Positions 106 to 10,020 of a stretch of 64,000 bases of DNA are shown here, one piece after another. Each line of letters opens with the position of its first letter. Position 1 is the stretch's first letter. Origin of the DNA: Cyanosarcina radialis HA8281-LM2 (GTDB lineage: Bacteria; Cyanobacteriota; Cyanobacteriia; Cyanobacteriales; CCAP-1448). The position numbers were made by a program, and so were the translations under genes. The notes under the pieces are model-generated. The model was not told the DNA's origin and searched no databases. It was given only the letters and a program-made list of their open reading frames with translations. Location: the NCBI GenBank assembly GCA_019359615.1, contig JAHHHA010000033.1, positions 1 through 64,000 of the forward strand. The letters run 5' to 3'.

Positions 106-273
106 CTAATTTCGTCTCCCCTTCAGGGTGTAAAGCTCATCTAGCACATAATTTGTCGTAATGAGAGTAATGCCTCTGACTGTATGATTAAATTCCACTG
201 CTTTGGTATGATTATCATCTTTACTATCAGCTAAGGCAGCGAAAGCACTAGTATCTACAAATATTCTCTTCAT
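106..273 (-). pseudogene. Truncated VapC-type PIN-domain toxin (N-terminal 55 residues)
   Basis: The frame starts MKRIFVDTSAFAAL, the classic first strand of a PIN ribonuclease with its first acidic residue (D7), and continues to NYVLDELYTL with the conserved acidic pair D45/E46. It then stops after only 55 codons. PIN toxins are normally about 125-145 residues, so the C-terminal half with the remaining catalytic acids is missing. The ATG overlaps the TGA of the upstream antitoxin gene (ATGA at 270-273), the usual coupling of a toxin-antitoxin pair. It is expected to be inactive. The break falls near position 106-120, next to the end of the plus-strand gene fragment. Confidence 0.75.
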
Positions 274-593
274 TCAGCTTTGGAATAGAGATACCGATCG
301 TGGTTAACAGATGGATTTTCTAAATTACCAGGAATGGCATCATCCCCTAGCGATCGCCAAACTTCCCAAGCTTCTTCGTCAATTGGTACTTGGCTGGGTG
401 CAACAGTAGAGGTCATCTCTGACTGTTTTAAAGGTTCTTCAGTTGGTTGTGCCTCGGTTGCTAGTAAATTAATCCTCTCTATCAGAAGTTTCTGCTCTGC
501 CTTGGGTAAGGCTCGAACTACCTGGATAATGGAGTCAACTAGCTGGGCGTTCATATTTTTGTCTCTCATTGATTTCACTACAGTTGGTTCCAT
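270..593 (-). CDS. Antitoxin-like protein upstream of a broken vapC
   Basis: This 107-residue hydrophilic protein has a helical N-terminal part (VDSIIQVVRALPKAEQKLLIERI) and an acidic, disordered C-terminal half ending DRYLYSKAE. The layout, with a small first gene overlapping a PIN gene by ATGA, is that of a type II antitoxin. The C-terminal tail would be the toxin-binding part. No DNA-binding fold is obvious, so the family is not named. An alternative start is the Met at residue 14 (MNAQLV). Since its toxin is truncated, it is now probably a solitary antitoxin. Confidence 0.6.
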   Translation of the reverse strand: MEPTVVKSMRDKNMNAQLVDSIIQVVRALPKAEQKLLIERINLLATEAQPTEEPLKQSEMTSTVAPSQVPIDEEAWEVWRSLGDDAIPGNLENPSVNHDRYLYSKAE

Positions 594-7605: not shown

Positions 7606-7751
7606 GTTTAGGATTGAGGACGCTTTCCCAAAGCCGAGGTAGACATTGCAGCTAACAGAGTAAGAGATCTCGATGAAATCCTTCGCCACGGGTGATTTCT
7701 TTCTATATGCGATCGCTCCACACTTTCTTTTGAGTCACATCGATCGCAATA

Positions 7752-7823
7752 TCGATTCGGGAAGGGTTAGCAACACCGATCGAAAAGTGCGATCGCCAGT
7801 TTTCAGGAGATTGTGAGCCGTGA
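7752..7823 (+). pseudogene. 3' fragment of a Phd/YefM-type antitoxin gene
   Basis: The frame reads SIREGLATPIEKCDRQF before running into a stop. Its 48 bases at 7752-7799 match 9451-9498, the 3' end of the intact antitoxin gene at 9274-9510, with only three differences. Nothing upstream in frame resembles the rest of the gene. This is therefore a decayed duplicate end of the same antitoxin, about 1.7 kb away. Confidence 0.75.
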
Positions 7824-7868
7824 ATTGTAAGCTAAGATCGGAGAAATTATTGTTGCTGGATAACTGAT

Positions 7869-8093
7869 ATGACAACCGCAGCACGTGTTATTCATAGCGA
7901 CCCTGATATTCTGGGAGGAACCACTGTTTTTGTGGGAACTCGCGTACCAATAAAAACTTTGCTCGATTATCTCGAAGCTGGCGATTCACTAGATATATTC
8001 TTGGATCGTTTTCCCAGTGTTAGCCGCGAGCAAGCGATCGCGGCTTTGGAATTAGCTAAGGAAATGCTAACAACCTATGCGAATTCTGCTTGA
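7869..8093 (+). CDS. DUF433 antitoxin
   Basis: This 74-residue protein has the DUF433 pattern: ARVIHSDPDILGGTTVFVGTRVPIKTLLDYLEAGDSLDIFLDRFPSV followed by EQAIAALELA. DUF433 proteins carry a winged-helix-like fold and act as antitoxins, usually directly upstream of a DUF5615 PIN-like toxin. Here the DUF5615 start codon lies inside the gene end (overlap 8077-8093), but that toxin is cut short. The antitoxin itself looks complete. Confidence 0.82.
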   Translation: MTTAARVIHSDPDILGGTTVFVGTRVPIKTLLDYLEAGDSLDIFLDRFPSVSREQAIAALELAKEMLTTYANSA

Positions 8094-8160
8094 TGAATGC
8101 GCCCCGCGACTTTTAAATTCTGAGTGCAAAATATCAAACAGTAAACTACGATTGAAGTAA
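8077..8160 (+). pseudogene. Truncated DUF5615 PIN-like toxin
   Basis: It begins MRILLDECAPRLLNSE, the hallmark N-terminus of DUF5615 toxins with the first acidic pair (D6, E7). The frame then loses similarity and stops after 27 codons; intact members have about 110-120. The start overlaps the DUF433 antitoxin gene by 17 bases, as in intact modules. Almost all of the nuclease is missing, so no toxin activity is expected. Confidence 0.7.
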
Positions 8161-8189
8161 GACTTGAGTTGAAATGAGGTCGATCGCCA

Positions 8190-8402
8190 ATGCCTGAACG
8201 GTTAGAAGAACGGGTAGCAAATTTAGAAGCTGAAGTTGCACGGCTGAGAAACAAGTTAGAAAACGATTCATCCTCCAAATCGTGGTGGCAGAAAATTGCT
8301 GTAACATTTGCTGACAACTCAGCTTATGATGAGGCGATGCGGCTGGGACGCGAGTATCGCGATTCTCTCCGGCAAAGTTCTACAGAGCCATCTGATGAGT
8401 AG
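8190..8402 (+). CDS. Coiled-coil antitoxin of a PIN toxin module (toxin broken)
   Basis: The 70-residue protein has an N-terminal coiled coil (MPERLEERVANLEAEVARLRNKLE), then SWWQKIAVTF and an acidic tail (YDEAMRLGREYRDSL). The same design is seen in the gene at 53493-53738, where the downstream PIN toxin is intact. Here the stop codon abuts the ATG of a PIN gene cut to 21 codons. It is probably a retained antitoxin. Confidence 0.7.
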   Translation: MPERLEERVANLEAEVARLRNKLENDSSSKSWWQKIAVTFADNSAYDEAMRLGREYRDSLRQSSTEPSDE

Positions 8403-8468
8403 ATGTATATTCTCGATACCGACCATCTTAGCGTTCTAGATAGTGTTGGATTAAAATGTGAAAAGTAA
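8403..8468 (+). pseudogene. N-terminal remnant of a PIN-domain toxin
   Basis: Starting directly at the base after the antitoxin stop, the frame reads MYILDTDHLSVLDSV and ends after 21 codons. MYILDTDH is the conserved first strand of PIN toxins and matches the start of the intact toxin at 53059-53481 (MSLYILDTDHISL). The remaining roughly 115 residues are gone. Confidence 0.7.
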
Positions 8469-8501
8469 CGATCGTGCCTATTTCAACTGATATTCATTTC
8501 T

Positions 8502-8738
8502 ATGCAAATTACCCTTGATGTTGATGAATCGCTTCTCAAGGAAGCCTTACAACTTAGTAACCTTACTACCCAACAAGAACTGGTGAATCTGGCTTTGCAA
8601 GAACTCGTGCGATCGCGAAGTGGTTCCTCGATCGCATCGGGCCGCAAAAATAATCTTCTCGACCTCGCGGGACAAATTCAGTTGGCTCCAGACTTTGACT
8701 ACAAAGCCATGCGCGAAACTCGTCATGTTGCTGATTGA
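8502..8738 (+). CDS. vapB: VapB-type antitoxin
   Basis: A 78-residue protein with an N-terminal ribbon-helix-helix-like segment (MQITLDVDESLLKEALQLSNLTTQQELVNLALQEL), typical of DUF2191/VapB antitoxins that bind the operon promoter as dimers. The C-terminal part (LLDLAGQIQLAPDFDYKAMRE) contains the LxxLxG...D(Y) pattern that wraps around the toxin. The gene overlaps vapC by 14 bases (8725-8738), so the pair is cotranscribed and probably autoregulated. Confidence 0.88.
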   Translation: MQITLDVDESLLKEALQLSNLTTQQELVNLALQELVRSRSGSSIASGRKNNLLDLAGQIQLAPDFDYKAMRETRHVAD

Positions 8739-9123
8739 TACATCTGTTTGGATCGGCGTGTTCCGCGATCGCAGCGGTCAAGTTCGCCAGCAGCTTGAAA
8801 CTATAATTGCCGATCGAAACGTTCTACTCACCCGATTCACTCAACTTGAATTGCTTCAAGGTAGCCTCAACGAGCAAGAATGGACTCTCCTTTCTACTTA
8901 CTTGGAAAACCAAGATTACGTCGAACTGACGATTCACTCTTGGCAAGCAGCCGCTCGCATCTACTATGAATTGCGTCGGCAAGGGCTTACCGTTCGCAGT
9001 CCGATCGATTGTTGTATTGCTCAAGCCGCACTGGAAAATAACTTACTTTTGATTCACAACGATCGCGATTTTGAAGCTATTGCCCAAGTGCGATCGCTTC
9101 AACACCTTCGCTTTCAACCTTGA
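8725..9123 (+). CDS. vapC: VapC-type PIN ribonuclease toxin
   Basis: A complete PIN-domain toxin of 132 residues. It starts MLLIDTSVWIGVFRD with acid D5. Other landmarks are LLTRFTQLELLQG with the conserved Glu, the RSPIDCCIAQAA segment with the third acid, and LIHNDRDFEAIA with the last Asp. I chose the ATG at 8725 because it begins the fold exactly and overlaps the vapB end; upstream in-frame starts would only translate vapB in another frame. This is the only intact toxin in the 7.7-9.5 kb cluster. Confidence 0.88.
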   Translation: MLLIDTSVWIGVFRDRSGQVRQQLETIIADRNVLLTRFTQLELLQGSLNEQEWTLLSTYLENQDYVELTIHSWQAAARIYYELRRQGLTVRSPIDCCIAQAALENNLLLIHNDRDFEAIAQVRSLQHLRFQP

Positions 9124-9154
9124 GTTTTTTAGGAAAAACGCTGTATTAGATATA

Positions 9155-9187
9155 GCGATACGTGCTACGCACAGGCTACGCCAACGC
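9155..9187. repeat. Dispersed spacer repeat GCGATACGTGCTAC...
   Basis: This 33-bp element, GCGATACGTGCTACGCACAGG then CTACGCCAACGC, recurs at 26256-26290 with two single-C insertions (CTACC in both halves). It belongs to the family of short GC-rich repeats with CTACG/CGTAG cores scattered in cyanobacterial spacers. Confidence 0.75.
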
Positions 9188-9273
9188 ACTTTCTCTACAT
9201 GAGCGATCGCCTCAGAAATTGCCAACAACCACTGGAGATCGGCTAGAATAGCAGGTCGAAGCGGATAGAGAAT

Positions 9274-9510
9274 ATGATTCCAGTTAATGAAGCTCAACAG
9301 CAGTTGCAGGATTTAATCGATGCAGTGAGCCAGTCGCATCAACCGATCGTTATTGTAGAAAAAGGTAGCAATGCGGTGTTGTTATCTGAAACTGACTGGG
9401 CATCGGTGCAAGAAACGCTTTATCTGCTATCAGTGCCAGGAATGCGAGAATCGATTCGGGAAGGATTGGCAACACCGATCGAAGAGTGCGATCGCCAGCT
9501 AGAGTGGTGA
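9274..9510 (+). CDS. Phd/YefM-family antitoxin
   Basis: A 78-residue protein with the Phd/YefM layout: MIPVNEAQQQLQDLIDAVSQSHQPIVIVEKGSNAVLLSETDWASVQETLYLL, then SVPGMRESIREG and the toxin-binding tail ECDRQLEW. This family pairs with RelE/YoeB mRNA interferases. The stop codon overlaps a GTG start (GTGA at 9507-9510) of a toxin that survives only as nine codons. A fragment of a second copy lies at 7752. Confidence 0.85.
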   Translation: MIPVNEAQQQLQDLIDAVSQSHQPIVIVEKGSNAVLLSETDWASVQETLYLLSVPGMRESIREGLATPIEECDRQLEW

Positions 9511-9536
9511 GTTGGAATCTGGTTTATACTAAGTAG
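9507..9536 (+). pseudogene. Nine-codon remnant of a RelE/YoeB-type toxin
   Basis: The frame opened by the GTG in the GTGA overlap reads (M)SWNLVYTK and then stops. SW-x-(V/L)VYTK is the characteristic beginning of YoeB/Txe-like toxins that follow Phd antitoxins in cyanobacteria. The rest of the roughly 85-residue toxin is absent. The call rests on a very short match plus its exact position. Confidence 0.55.
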
Positions 9537-9594
9537 GCATAGAAAAATGCGGAAAACTTCAGTCTAATTACATAGTTAGCCGACTACGCAAGTC

Positions 9595-10020
9595 ATGCAC
9601 ACAAGCCTTCAGCCAAAGACAAACATCAGACTGCTGGTGATTTGGAGCGTTGTTGCGCTTTCTGTAGCAGTCGTTGCGTCACCGACTCCGTGGCTGTTTC
9701 TCGGCAGCGGCATGGTGCTGGGAGCTTGCGCTGGCATCATTCAGCTTCGTGCTTTGCGAGAGTCGTCGCGAGCTTTGCTCGCTGCTCAGTCCACGATCGA
9801 GGTTCGCCGTGCTTTGAGTTCATCTCGCAGTGGGCGGTATTACATCTACACGTTTTGGTTCAGCATGGCAGTGCTATTAGCGTTGGCGTTCTACGTTTTC
9901 CGAGGTCGCGCTTTCGTTGGCTTGCTCGCAGGCTACTCTGCCTTTGCATTCATGCGTGAGTTACTGACCTTGCGCGGCACATTTGAGTTGCACAGACTTT
10001 CGACGGAGCAGCGAGAATGA
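9595..10020 (+). CDS. Small integral membrane protein, foreign-looking
   Basis: The 141-residue product shows four probable membrane helices: about 13-31 (LLVIWSVVALSVAVVA), 33-50 (WLFLGSGMVLGACAGII), 84-101 (YIYTFWFSMAVLLALAFYVF) and 104-121. A conserved-looking charged loop (RALRESSRALLAAQSTIEVRRALSSSRSGRYY) lies between pairs. I do not recognise the family. The DNA is more GC-rich than its neighbours, has no HIP1 site, and is followed by a GC-rich segment ending GTTAGGT, so it may be a captured integron cassette (see findings). No operon partners. Confidence 0.65.
   Translation: MHTSLQPKTNIRLLVIWSVVALSVAVVASPTPWLFLGSGMVLGACAGIIQLRALRESSRALLAAQSTIEVRRALSSSRSGRYYIYTFWFSMAVLLALAFYVFRGRAFVGLLAGYSAFAFMRELLTLRGTFELHRLSTEQRE

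What the first reader, a model, noticed from the sequence alone, without database searches (positions are those of the whole stretch)
7752..9536. Toxin graveyard: antitoxins kept, toxins reduced to stumps
In 1.8 kb there are a DUF433 antitoxin with a 27-codon DUF5615 stump, a coiled-coil antitoxin with a 21-codon PIN stump, an intact VapBC, and a Phd antitoxin with a 9-codon RelE-type stump. All stumps start at the correct position and with the correct motif. The vapC at 106-273 is a fifth module of the same kind. The repeated outcome points to selection to keep antitoxins (as anti-addiction modules) or to one mechanism that removes toxins.
Basis: partly seen in the sequence, partly recalled or inferred. 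Interest (0 to 1): 0.75.

Follow-up and report, generated by a model that had tools for sequence, protein, structure and literature searches.

The report
Decaying toxin-antitoxin genes, toxins lost first
A cyanobacterial chromosome carries a cluster of poison-and-antidote gene pairs in which most poison genes have died while the antidotes survive, an ordinary order of decay that recurs in many related cyanobacteria.

Summary
At 7869-9536 a DUF433, a coiled-coil and a Phd antitoxin are each followed, in the right place and frame, by the dead start of the matching toxin; one VapBC is intact. Corrections: the 27- and 21-codon "stumps" hold only about 13 toxin codons each; the RelE-type "9-codon stump" is a Txe/YoeB gene with in-frame stops, recognisable past them; and one antitoxin has died too (Phd fragment, 7751-7799). 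The lesions differ, so one toxin-removing mechanism is not supported. In relatives the same toxins die at many positions, whereas 53 of 53 full-length Txe/YoeB and PIN toxins examined toxin-first have an open antitoxin gene. Toxins die first, antitoxins later or not at all, as already described for Haemophilus toxTA. Phd antitoxins beside dead toxins stay as conserved as paired ones while toxin remnants relax: modest evidence that some are kept by selection. Anti-addiction could explain it but is untested. One pattern I did not find described: the Txe/YoeB toxin is not intact in 24 of 37 cyanobacterial loci but in 2 of 43 from other phyla. Verdict: real, interpretable, mostly ordinary.

The parts
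7751..7799 (+). Fragment of a Phd antitoxin gene (codons 60-75): a dead antitoxin
   Evidence: 49-bp alignment with 9450-9498; tblastn 3e-6
7869..8093 (+). DUF433 antitoxin, open, 74 aa
   Evidence: PF04255, 1e-16
8077..8117 (+). Start of a DUF5615 (PIN-like) toxin, about 13 codons; the frame runs on to a stop at 8160 in unrelated DNA
8124..8189 (+). Upstream region belonging to the next module, conserved in relatives; marks the right edge of the first junction
8190..8402 (+). Coiled-coil antitoxin partner of a PIN toxin, open, 70 aa; no Pfam family above cut-off
8403..8441 (+). Start of a PIN (VapC-like) toxin, 13 secure codons; the frame runs on to a stop at 8468
8502..8738 (+). VapB antitoxin, intact
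   Evidence: PF09957, 2.3e-15
8725..9123 (+). VapC toxin, intact, 132 aa
   Evidence: (NF047959, 6.6e-40)
9274..9510 (+). Phd/YefM antitoxin, open, 78 aa; none of 38 residues conserved in 14 toxin-intact relatives is changed
9507..9563 (+). Txe/YoeB (RelE superfamily) toxin pseudogene: in-frame stops at codons 10 and 12, recognisable to about codon 16-19
270..593 (-). Small ORF overlapping the vapC remnant, presumed antitoxin; no Pfam or NCBIfam match
106..273 (-). vapC (PIN) cut at 55 codons
   Evidence: PIN 4.8e-4, profile 1-44

Best explanation
These are ordinary chromosomal type II toxin-antitoxin modules in ordered decay. Shown: each antitoxin gene of the cluster is open, each partner toxin except VapC is dead, the lesions differ, and in relatives the toxin is dead with a living antitoxin far more often than the reverse. 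Some orphan antitoxins (here the Phd) then stay under purifying selection for a time, plausibly because they neutralise related toxins of incoming elements or of a paralogue (untested); others decay in turn, like the Phd fragment at 7751-7799.
For: Toxin-first search: 26 of 26 full-length Txe/YoeB and 27 of 27 full-length PIN toxins have an open, homologous antitoxin ORF upstream; 7 of the 60 fetched loci had a non-full-length or stop-bearing toxin and are not in these counts. In this genome all 10 DUF5615 hits lie beside a DUF433 hit, while 10 of 26 DUF433/Phd hits have no apparently intact toxin (read by eye, one of the ten is an antitoxin fragment). In the order, antitoxin open with toxin broken or absent: 21 of 59 Phd loci, 13 of 31 coiled-coil, 7 of 29 DUF433; antitoxin disrupted with toxin intact: 1, 0, 0. 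Lesions vary: stops in otherwise full toxins, frameshifts, internal deletions, truncations. Retained toxin length is 5'-biased: median 24% of the gene in 24 hand-compiled lesions, KS p 0.0008; 21 without the window's rows, p 0.0098. Constraint: in 21 Phd loci with open antitoxin and broken toxin, remnants are changed at 30 of 642 conserved sites against 36 of 1627 in intact toxins (p 0.0032), antitoxins at 10 of 566 against 20 of 957 (p 0.71); window alone 0 of 38 in Phd, 5 of 13 in the toxin remnant, two of them stops. Precedent: Haemophilus toxTA, partial toxin deletions with full-length antitoxin in most strains and none with toxin only (PMC6957337, passages).
Against: Two loci run the other way: L215 (antitoxin frameshift, toxin intact) and L316 (antitoxin stop near its C-terminus, toxin intact). 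L280 has a stop-bearing PIN and no recognisable antitoxin. The constraint test partly selects open antitoxins; over all 39 Phd loci with a lost toxin, antitoxins are changed at 33 of 1032 conserved sites against 20 of 957 (p 0.16), and the toxin-versus-antitoxin contrast over 24 readable loci is only p 0.042. Loci are related and some share a lesion, so the tests are not independent. Modules 1 and 2 keep too little toxin to date their loss. Nothing here shows expression or neutralisation.
Confidence: 0.78

Rival explanations
1. Anti-addiction: orphan antitoxins are actively kept because they protect the cell from plasmids or islands that carry a related toxin.
For: Constraint on Phd antitoxins beside dead toxins; only 3 of 39 Phd antitoxins whose toxin is lost are clearly dead. 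An intact homologue of module 1 occurs on a Synechocystis PCC 6803 plasmid (toxin 78% identical to the relative used as query); four plasmid records carry Txe/YoeB at 60-69%, two of them in Geminocystis and Annamia, cyanobacteria by my recollection. The idea is in print as a possibility (PMC7192599, PMC10790755, passages).
Against: No neutralisation data. Only 18, 6 and 5 of 72,556 plasmid records carry a relative of the three toxins at E 1e-15. Order of loss explains the asymmetry without it.
Confidence: 0.3
2. One mutational mechanism (recombination at a shared motif or a mobile element) repeatedly removes toxins just after their start.
For: Short stumps recur in other genomes (L048 13 codons, L239 14, L205 9, L199 13). 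The dead Phd (ends 7799) and the Phd of G001 both lose homology within a few bases of a GCGATCGC (HIP1-type) octamer.
Against: Lesions are of different kinds and lengths (3 to 121 codons, stops, frameshifts). I saw no sequence shared by the two window junctions (by eye, not tested). GCGATCGC occurs every 780 bp and CGATCG every 239 bp in the window, so proximity may be chance.
Confidence: 0.05
3. Exaptation: the antitoxins now act as DNA-binding regulators of other genes.
For: DUF433, VapB and Phd families contain DNA-binding members (recalled; for DUF433/COG2442 also PMC2701414, passages); constraint persists in Phd.
Against: The roughly 30 bp upstream of Phd are not visibly conserved in an alignment of five loci; no target known.
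Confidence: 0.1
4. Later modules inserted into earlier toxin genes, cutting them, rather than deletions removing the toxins.
For: The DUF5615 remnant is followed within a few bases by the conserved upstream region of the next module.
Against: No displaced 3' part of DUF5615, PIN (module-2 type) or Txe is found in the 64 kb; the Txe gene carries stops.
Confidence: 0.08

Closest known systems
Haemophilus influenzae toxTA with deleted toxT (PMC6957337)
   Same: Toxin gene partly deleted in most strains, antitoxin full length and under purifying selection, no strain with toxin only; anti-addiction discussed.
   Different: There the toxin precedes the antitoxin and two common toxin deletions dominate within one species; here several modules in one cyanobacterial cluster and varied lesions among species.
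Orphan antitoxins of Klebsiella and E. coli (PMC7192599, PMC10790755)
   Same: Abundant antitoxins without an intact partner, explained as degraded modules, possible anti-addiction or regulators.
   Different: The E. coli study also reports abundant orphan toxins; among the full-length toxins I examined toxin-first I saw none.
PIN-COG2442 (DUF433) and PhdYefM-YoeB modules of Synechocystis PCC 6803 (PMC4963859)
   Same: Same antitoxin families and antitoxin-toxin order; stand-alone DUF433 antitoxins are listed there too.
   Different: Most listed pairs have both genes; toxin remnants are not mentioned in the passages I saw.

Membership tests
DUF433-DUF5615 toxin-antitoxin module | DUF433 protein present | tested here: met
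   PF04255 1e-16
DUF433-DUF5615 toxin-antitoxin module | Full-length DUF5615 toxin directly downstream | tested here: not met
   about 13 codons remain; a remnant of such a module, not a working member
Phd/YefM-Txe/YoeB module | Phd/YefM antitoxin | tested here: met
   7.7e-16, TIGR01552
Phd/YefM-Txe/YoeB module | Open Txe/YoeB toxin | tested here: not met
   two in-frame stops within 12 codons; an intact relative scores TIGR02116 1e-28
Coiled-coil antitoxin-PIN module | Antitoxin homologous to the ORF upstream of intact PIN genes | tested here: met
   27 of 27 full-length PIN loci
Coiled-coil antitoxin-PIN module | Full-length PIN toxin | tested here: not met
   13 secure codons
VapBC (8502-9123) | VapB plus open PIN toxin of VapC family | tested here: met
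Anti-addiction module | Antitoxin neutralises a toxin carried by another element | not testable with these tools
   needs expression assays
Orphan antitoxin under selection | Antitoxin constrained after toxin loss | tested here: inconclusive
   supported and by the open antitoxins; weaker when disrupted ones are included

The most novel reading that the evidence does not exclude
Filamentous and related cyanobacteria shed toxins of type II modules on a phylum-wide scale while keeping the antitoxins under purifying selection, so that their chromosomes accumulate a bank of antidotes against plasmid and island addiction; bacteria of other phyla with the same Txe/YoeB module do not do this.
Probability: 0.15. 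Interest if true: 0.6.

Novelty: new member of a known kind. Interest (0 to 1): 0.32.

Why it matters
The locus and its relatives give a natural series of toxin-antitoxin pairs caught at successive stages of decay (stop-bearing toxins, short stumps, orphan antitoxins, dead antitoxins), from which the order of loss can be read. If the cyanobacterial excess of orphan antitoxins holds up, it makes the old anti-addiction proposal testable in a defined group.

Tried and rejected
Rejected: chance matches (alignments run unbroken from antitoxin into stump). Rejected: toxin hidden in another frame or displaced within the window. Rejected: stumps as conserved peptides, since their lengths and ends vary among relatives. 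Not accepted: continuation of the PIN stump to codon 20; BLAST extends it, but neither codons 14-30 nor 95-120 fit better than shuffles. I first suspected that the PIN deletion of the window and of G050 (L048) was one event; the window junction is uninformative. Synteny did not help: in G001 the contig ends about 0.9 kb beyond the 3' end of the manC-like gene (L287), and none of the queries matches in that stretch; G001 carries a DUF433 pair with a near-full toxin (1-106 of 108) and a Phd without toxin elsewhere. Structure prediction was not used.

Dropped rows and corrections: of 100 Phd/Txe loci, 30 were duplicates. On checking I found that misread L189 (its antitoxin was cut by my search window) and counted open antitoxins with a divergent N-terminus as broken; redo the classification and replace those counts. 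The close-clade sets leave out distant antitoxins (below 55, 50 and 70% identity) and drop L202 and L226 (too near a contig end) and L280 (no antitoxin found). The stump-length list was compiled by hand; L087 and L090 were merged and L054, L068, L070 and L272 left out. The Fisher test of antitoxin disruption (7 of 27) is superseded (6 of 27 against 1 of 32, p 0.04). Independence of the other lesions was not tested. The genome census was read by eye; the toxin of L045 is accepted on length only. The mended counts did not change my odds.
Full report
What is there. The window is the first 64 kb of contig C17 of an unnamed 6.5-Mb genome; the closest named relatives of its Phd gene are cyanobacterial. 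Between a mannose-1-phosphate guanylyltransferase-like gene (ending 7605; name recalled) and a 141-aa ORF at 9595 lie four toxin-antitoxin modules on the + strand. DUF433 (7869-8093), VapB (8502-8738) and Phd/YefM (9274-9510) are Pfam matches of 1e-16 to 2e-15. The 70-aa coiled-coil ORF (8190-8402) has no Pfam family above cut-off, but homologues stand upstream of all 27 full-length PIN toxins of its partner family that I examined. VapC (8725-9123) is intact.

The stumps. BLASTN of the cluster against relatives gives alignments that run from each antitoxin into the start of its toxin: 7825-8108 (83%), 8140-8445 (78%), 9272-9550 (83%). The DUF5615 remnant ends near 8117; from about 8121-8128 the DNA is the upstream region of the next module as found in other genomes. 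The PIN remnant is secure for 13 codons. The third is different: relatives have a Txe/YoeB toxin there (NCBIfam TIGR02116, 1e-28), and in the window its reading has in-frame stops at codons 10 and 12 with recognisable toxin sequence beyond them. Identity to 14 intact relatives is 0.64 and 0.72 in codons 9-12 and 13-16, against 0.87 and 0.88 among the intact ones, and is at background by codons 25-28. So this is a stop-bearing, eroded pseudogene, not a 9-codon deletion remnant. The vapC at 273-106 (-) is cut at 55 codons. A second coiled-coil/PIN pair at 53720-53065 (-) looks intact.

How common it is in this genome. DUF433 has 16 hits and Phd 10. From the downstream ORFs (by eye), 16 of these 26 have an apparently intact toxin and 10 do not; one of the ten is an antitoxin fragment. 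Conversely all 10 DUF5615 hits, one of them truncated, lie next to a DUF433 hit. No toxin of the window's Txe/YoeB type was found in the own genome at E 1e-8, against 144 of 388 genomes of the order. Three dead toxins in a cluster of four is above the genome rate (10 of 26) but not extraordinary.

How it looks in relatives. I searched 388, 388 and 373 genomes of the order with the coiled-coil, Phd and DUF433 antitoxins and 388 and 368 with the Txe/YoeB and PIN toxins, and classified fetched loci by tblastn (corrected). In close clades: Phd, 59 loci, toxin intact in 32 (antitoxin open in 31, frameshifted in 1, L215), toxin broken or absent in 27 (antitoxin open in 21, disrupted in 6); coiled-coil, 31 loci, 16 toxin-intact with open antitoxin, 15 toxin-less or broken (13 open, 2 disrupted); DUF433, 29 loci, 22 and 7, all antitoxins open. 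Starting instead from toxins (30 loci each), 26 Txe/YoeB and 27 PIN toxins are full length, and 53 of 53 have an open homologous antitoxin upstream. Outside these sets L316 has an intact toxin beside an antitoxin with a stop near its C-terminus, and L280 a stop-bearing PIN without recognisable antitoxin. Lesions include stops in otherwise full toxins (L084, L086, L145, L294, L296, L306, L310), internal deletions leaving both ends (L048, L199), a frameshift (L103) and truncations of 3 to 121 codons. L087 and L090 share a lesion; whether others do was not tested. This variety speaks against a single mechanism. The retained part is 5'-biased (median 24% of the toxin, 24 lesions), as expected if dead DNA is eroded stepwise up to an edge that is still protected, namely the antitoxin; that reading is an inference.

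Is the antitoxin kept by selection? For the window's Phd, 0 of 38 residues conserved in 14 toxin-intact relatives are changed, against 5 of 13 in toxin codons 2-20 (two of the five are stops; Fisher p 0.0005). The end of toxin homology is fuzzy, so the last two of the five are the least secure. Pooled over 21 cyanobacterial loci with open antitoxin and readable broken toxin, remnants are changed at 30 of 642 conserved sites against 36 of 1627 in intact toxins (p 0.0032), antitoxins at 10 of 566 against 20 of 957 (p 0.71), and remnant against antitoxin gives p 0.0056. Of 39 Phd loci with a lost toxin, 32 antitoxins are open; of the 7 disrupted, 3 lose only their last three to six residues, 1 has a stop in an insertion, and 3 are clearly dead (stops at codon 30 in L095 and L325, a C-terminal fragment in L225). 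Against strong selection: over all 39, antitoxins are changed at 33 of 1032 conserved sites against 20 of 957 (p 0.16), and over 24 readable loci of any antitoxin state the toxin-antitoxin contrast is p 0.042. Pairwise, antitoxins beside lost toxins have pN/pS like paired ones (0.21 and 0.24 Phd; 0.30 and 0.29 coiled-coil; 0.15 and 0.13 DUF433, on the uncorrected classes and open antitoxins only). Related loci make the p-values optimistic. I conclude that antitoxins outlive toxins under some constraint, not always. For the DUF433 and coiled-coil modules of the window the 13 remaining codons show too little decay to say.

A contrast between phyla. Among the best 80 of 498 relatives of the Phd antitoxin in named GTDB genomes, the partner toxin is not intact in 24 of 37 cyanobacterial loci but in 2 of 43 from other phyla (Fisher 5e-9). 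Sixteen of the 37 overlap the order set. The query is itself an orphan and the cyanobacterial loci are closer to it, so ascertainment may exaggerate the contrast; slow removal of dead DNA in these genomes is a simpler possible cause than special selection.

What is known. Decay of chromosomal modules by deletion and nonsense mutation, orphan antitoxins and the anti-addiction idea are in print: PMC7167474, PMC7192599, PMC10790755 and PMC2701414 (passages). The closest precedent is Haemophilus toxTA: 162 of 181 genomes with recognisable, full-length antitoxin, toxin deletions in all but 24 of these, none with toxin only, antitoxin dN/dS 0.037 (PMC6957337, passages). Synechocystis PCC 6803 carries the same families, including stand-alone DUF433 antitoxins (PMC4963859, table passages), and a plasmid-borne DUF433-DUF5615 pair whose toxin is 78% identical to the relative used here. 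My five literature searches (listings only beyond the papers named) did not list a paper on the phylum contrast; only open-licence papers were searched.

Verdict. The finding is real and well seen, with corrected lesions. It is best read as ordered decay of ordinary modules; selection for orphan antitoxins is plausible for the Phd and unproven for the others.

Noticed in passing
window 53720-53065 (-): A second coiled-coil antitoxin and PIN toxin pair, about 30% identical to the module-2 family and apparently intact.
   Followed up: partly
window 7751-7799 and G001 locus L289 3034-3261: Two Phd genes lose homology within a few bases of a GCGATCGC (HIP1-type) octamer near Phd codon 74; possibly chance in a HIP1-rich genome.
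   Followed up: partly
L293-L372: Txe/YoeB toxins beside this Phd are not intact in 24 of 37 cyanobacterial loci but in 2 of 43 loci of other phyla.
   Followed up: partly
L035 (own genome, C16 near 256295): A DUF433 gene whose DUF5615 toxin reads into a long ORF resembling a recombinase after about 22 codons (resemblance recalled, not searched).
   Followed up: no
L115 (own genome, C5 near 28593): A Phd-type antitoxin whose PIN toxin reads on into a 231-codon frame that departs from PIN after about 35 codons (by eye).
   Followed up: no
L120, L121, L126, L129: Phd antitoxins with intact toxins whose first 22-24 residues are replaced within a longer frame (196-197 codons), four genomes: perhaps a domain swap of the antitoxin.
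   Followed up: no
window 9595-10020 (+): 141-aa ORF directly after the decayed toxin, only a weak membrane-protein match (Rnf-Nqr, below cut-off).
   Followed up: no
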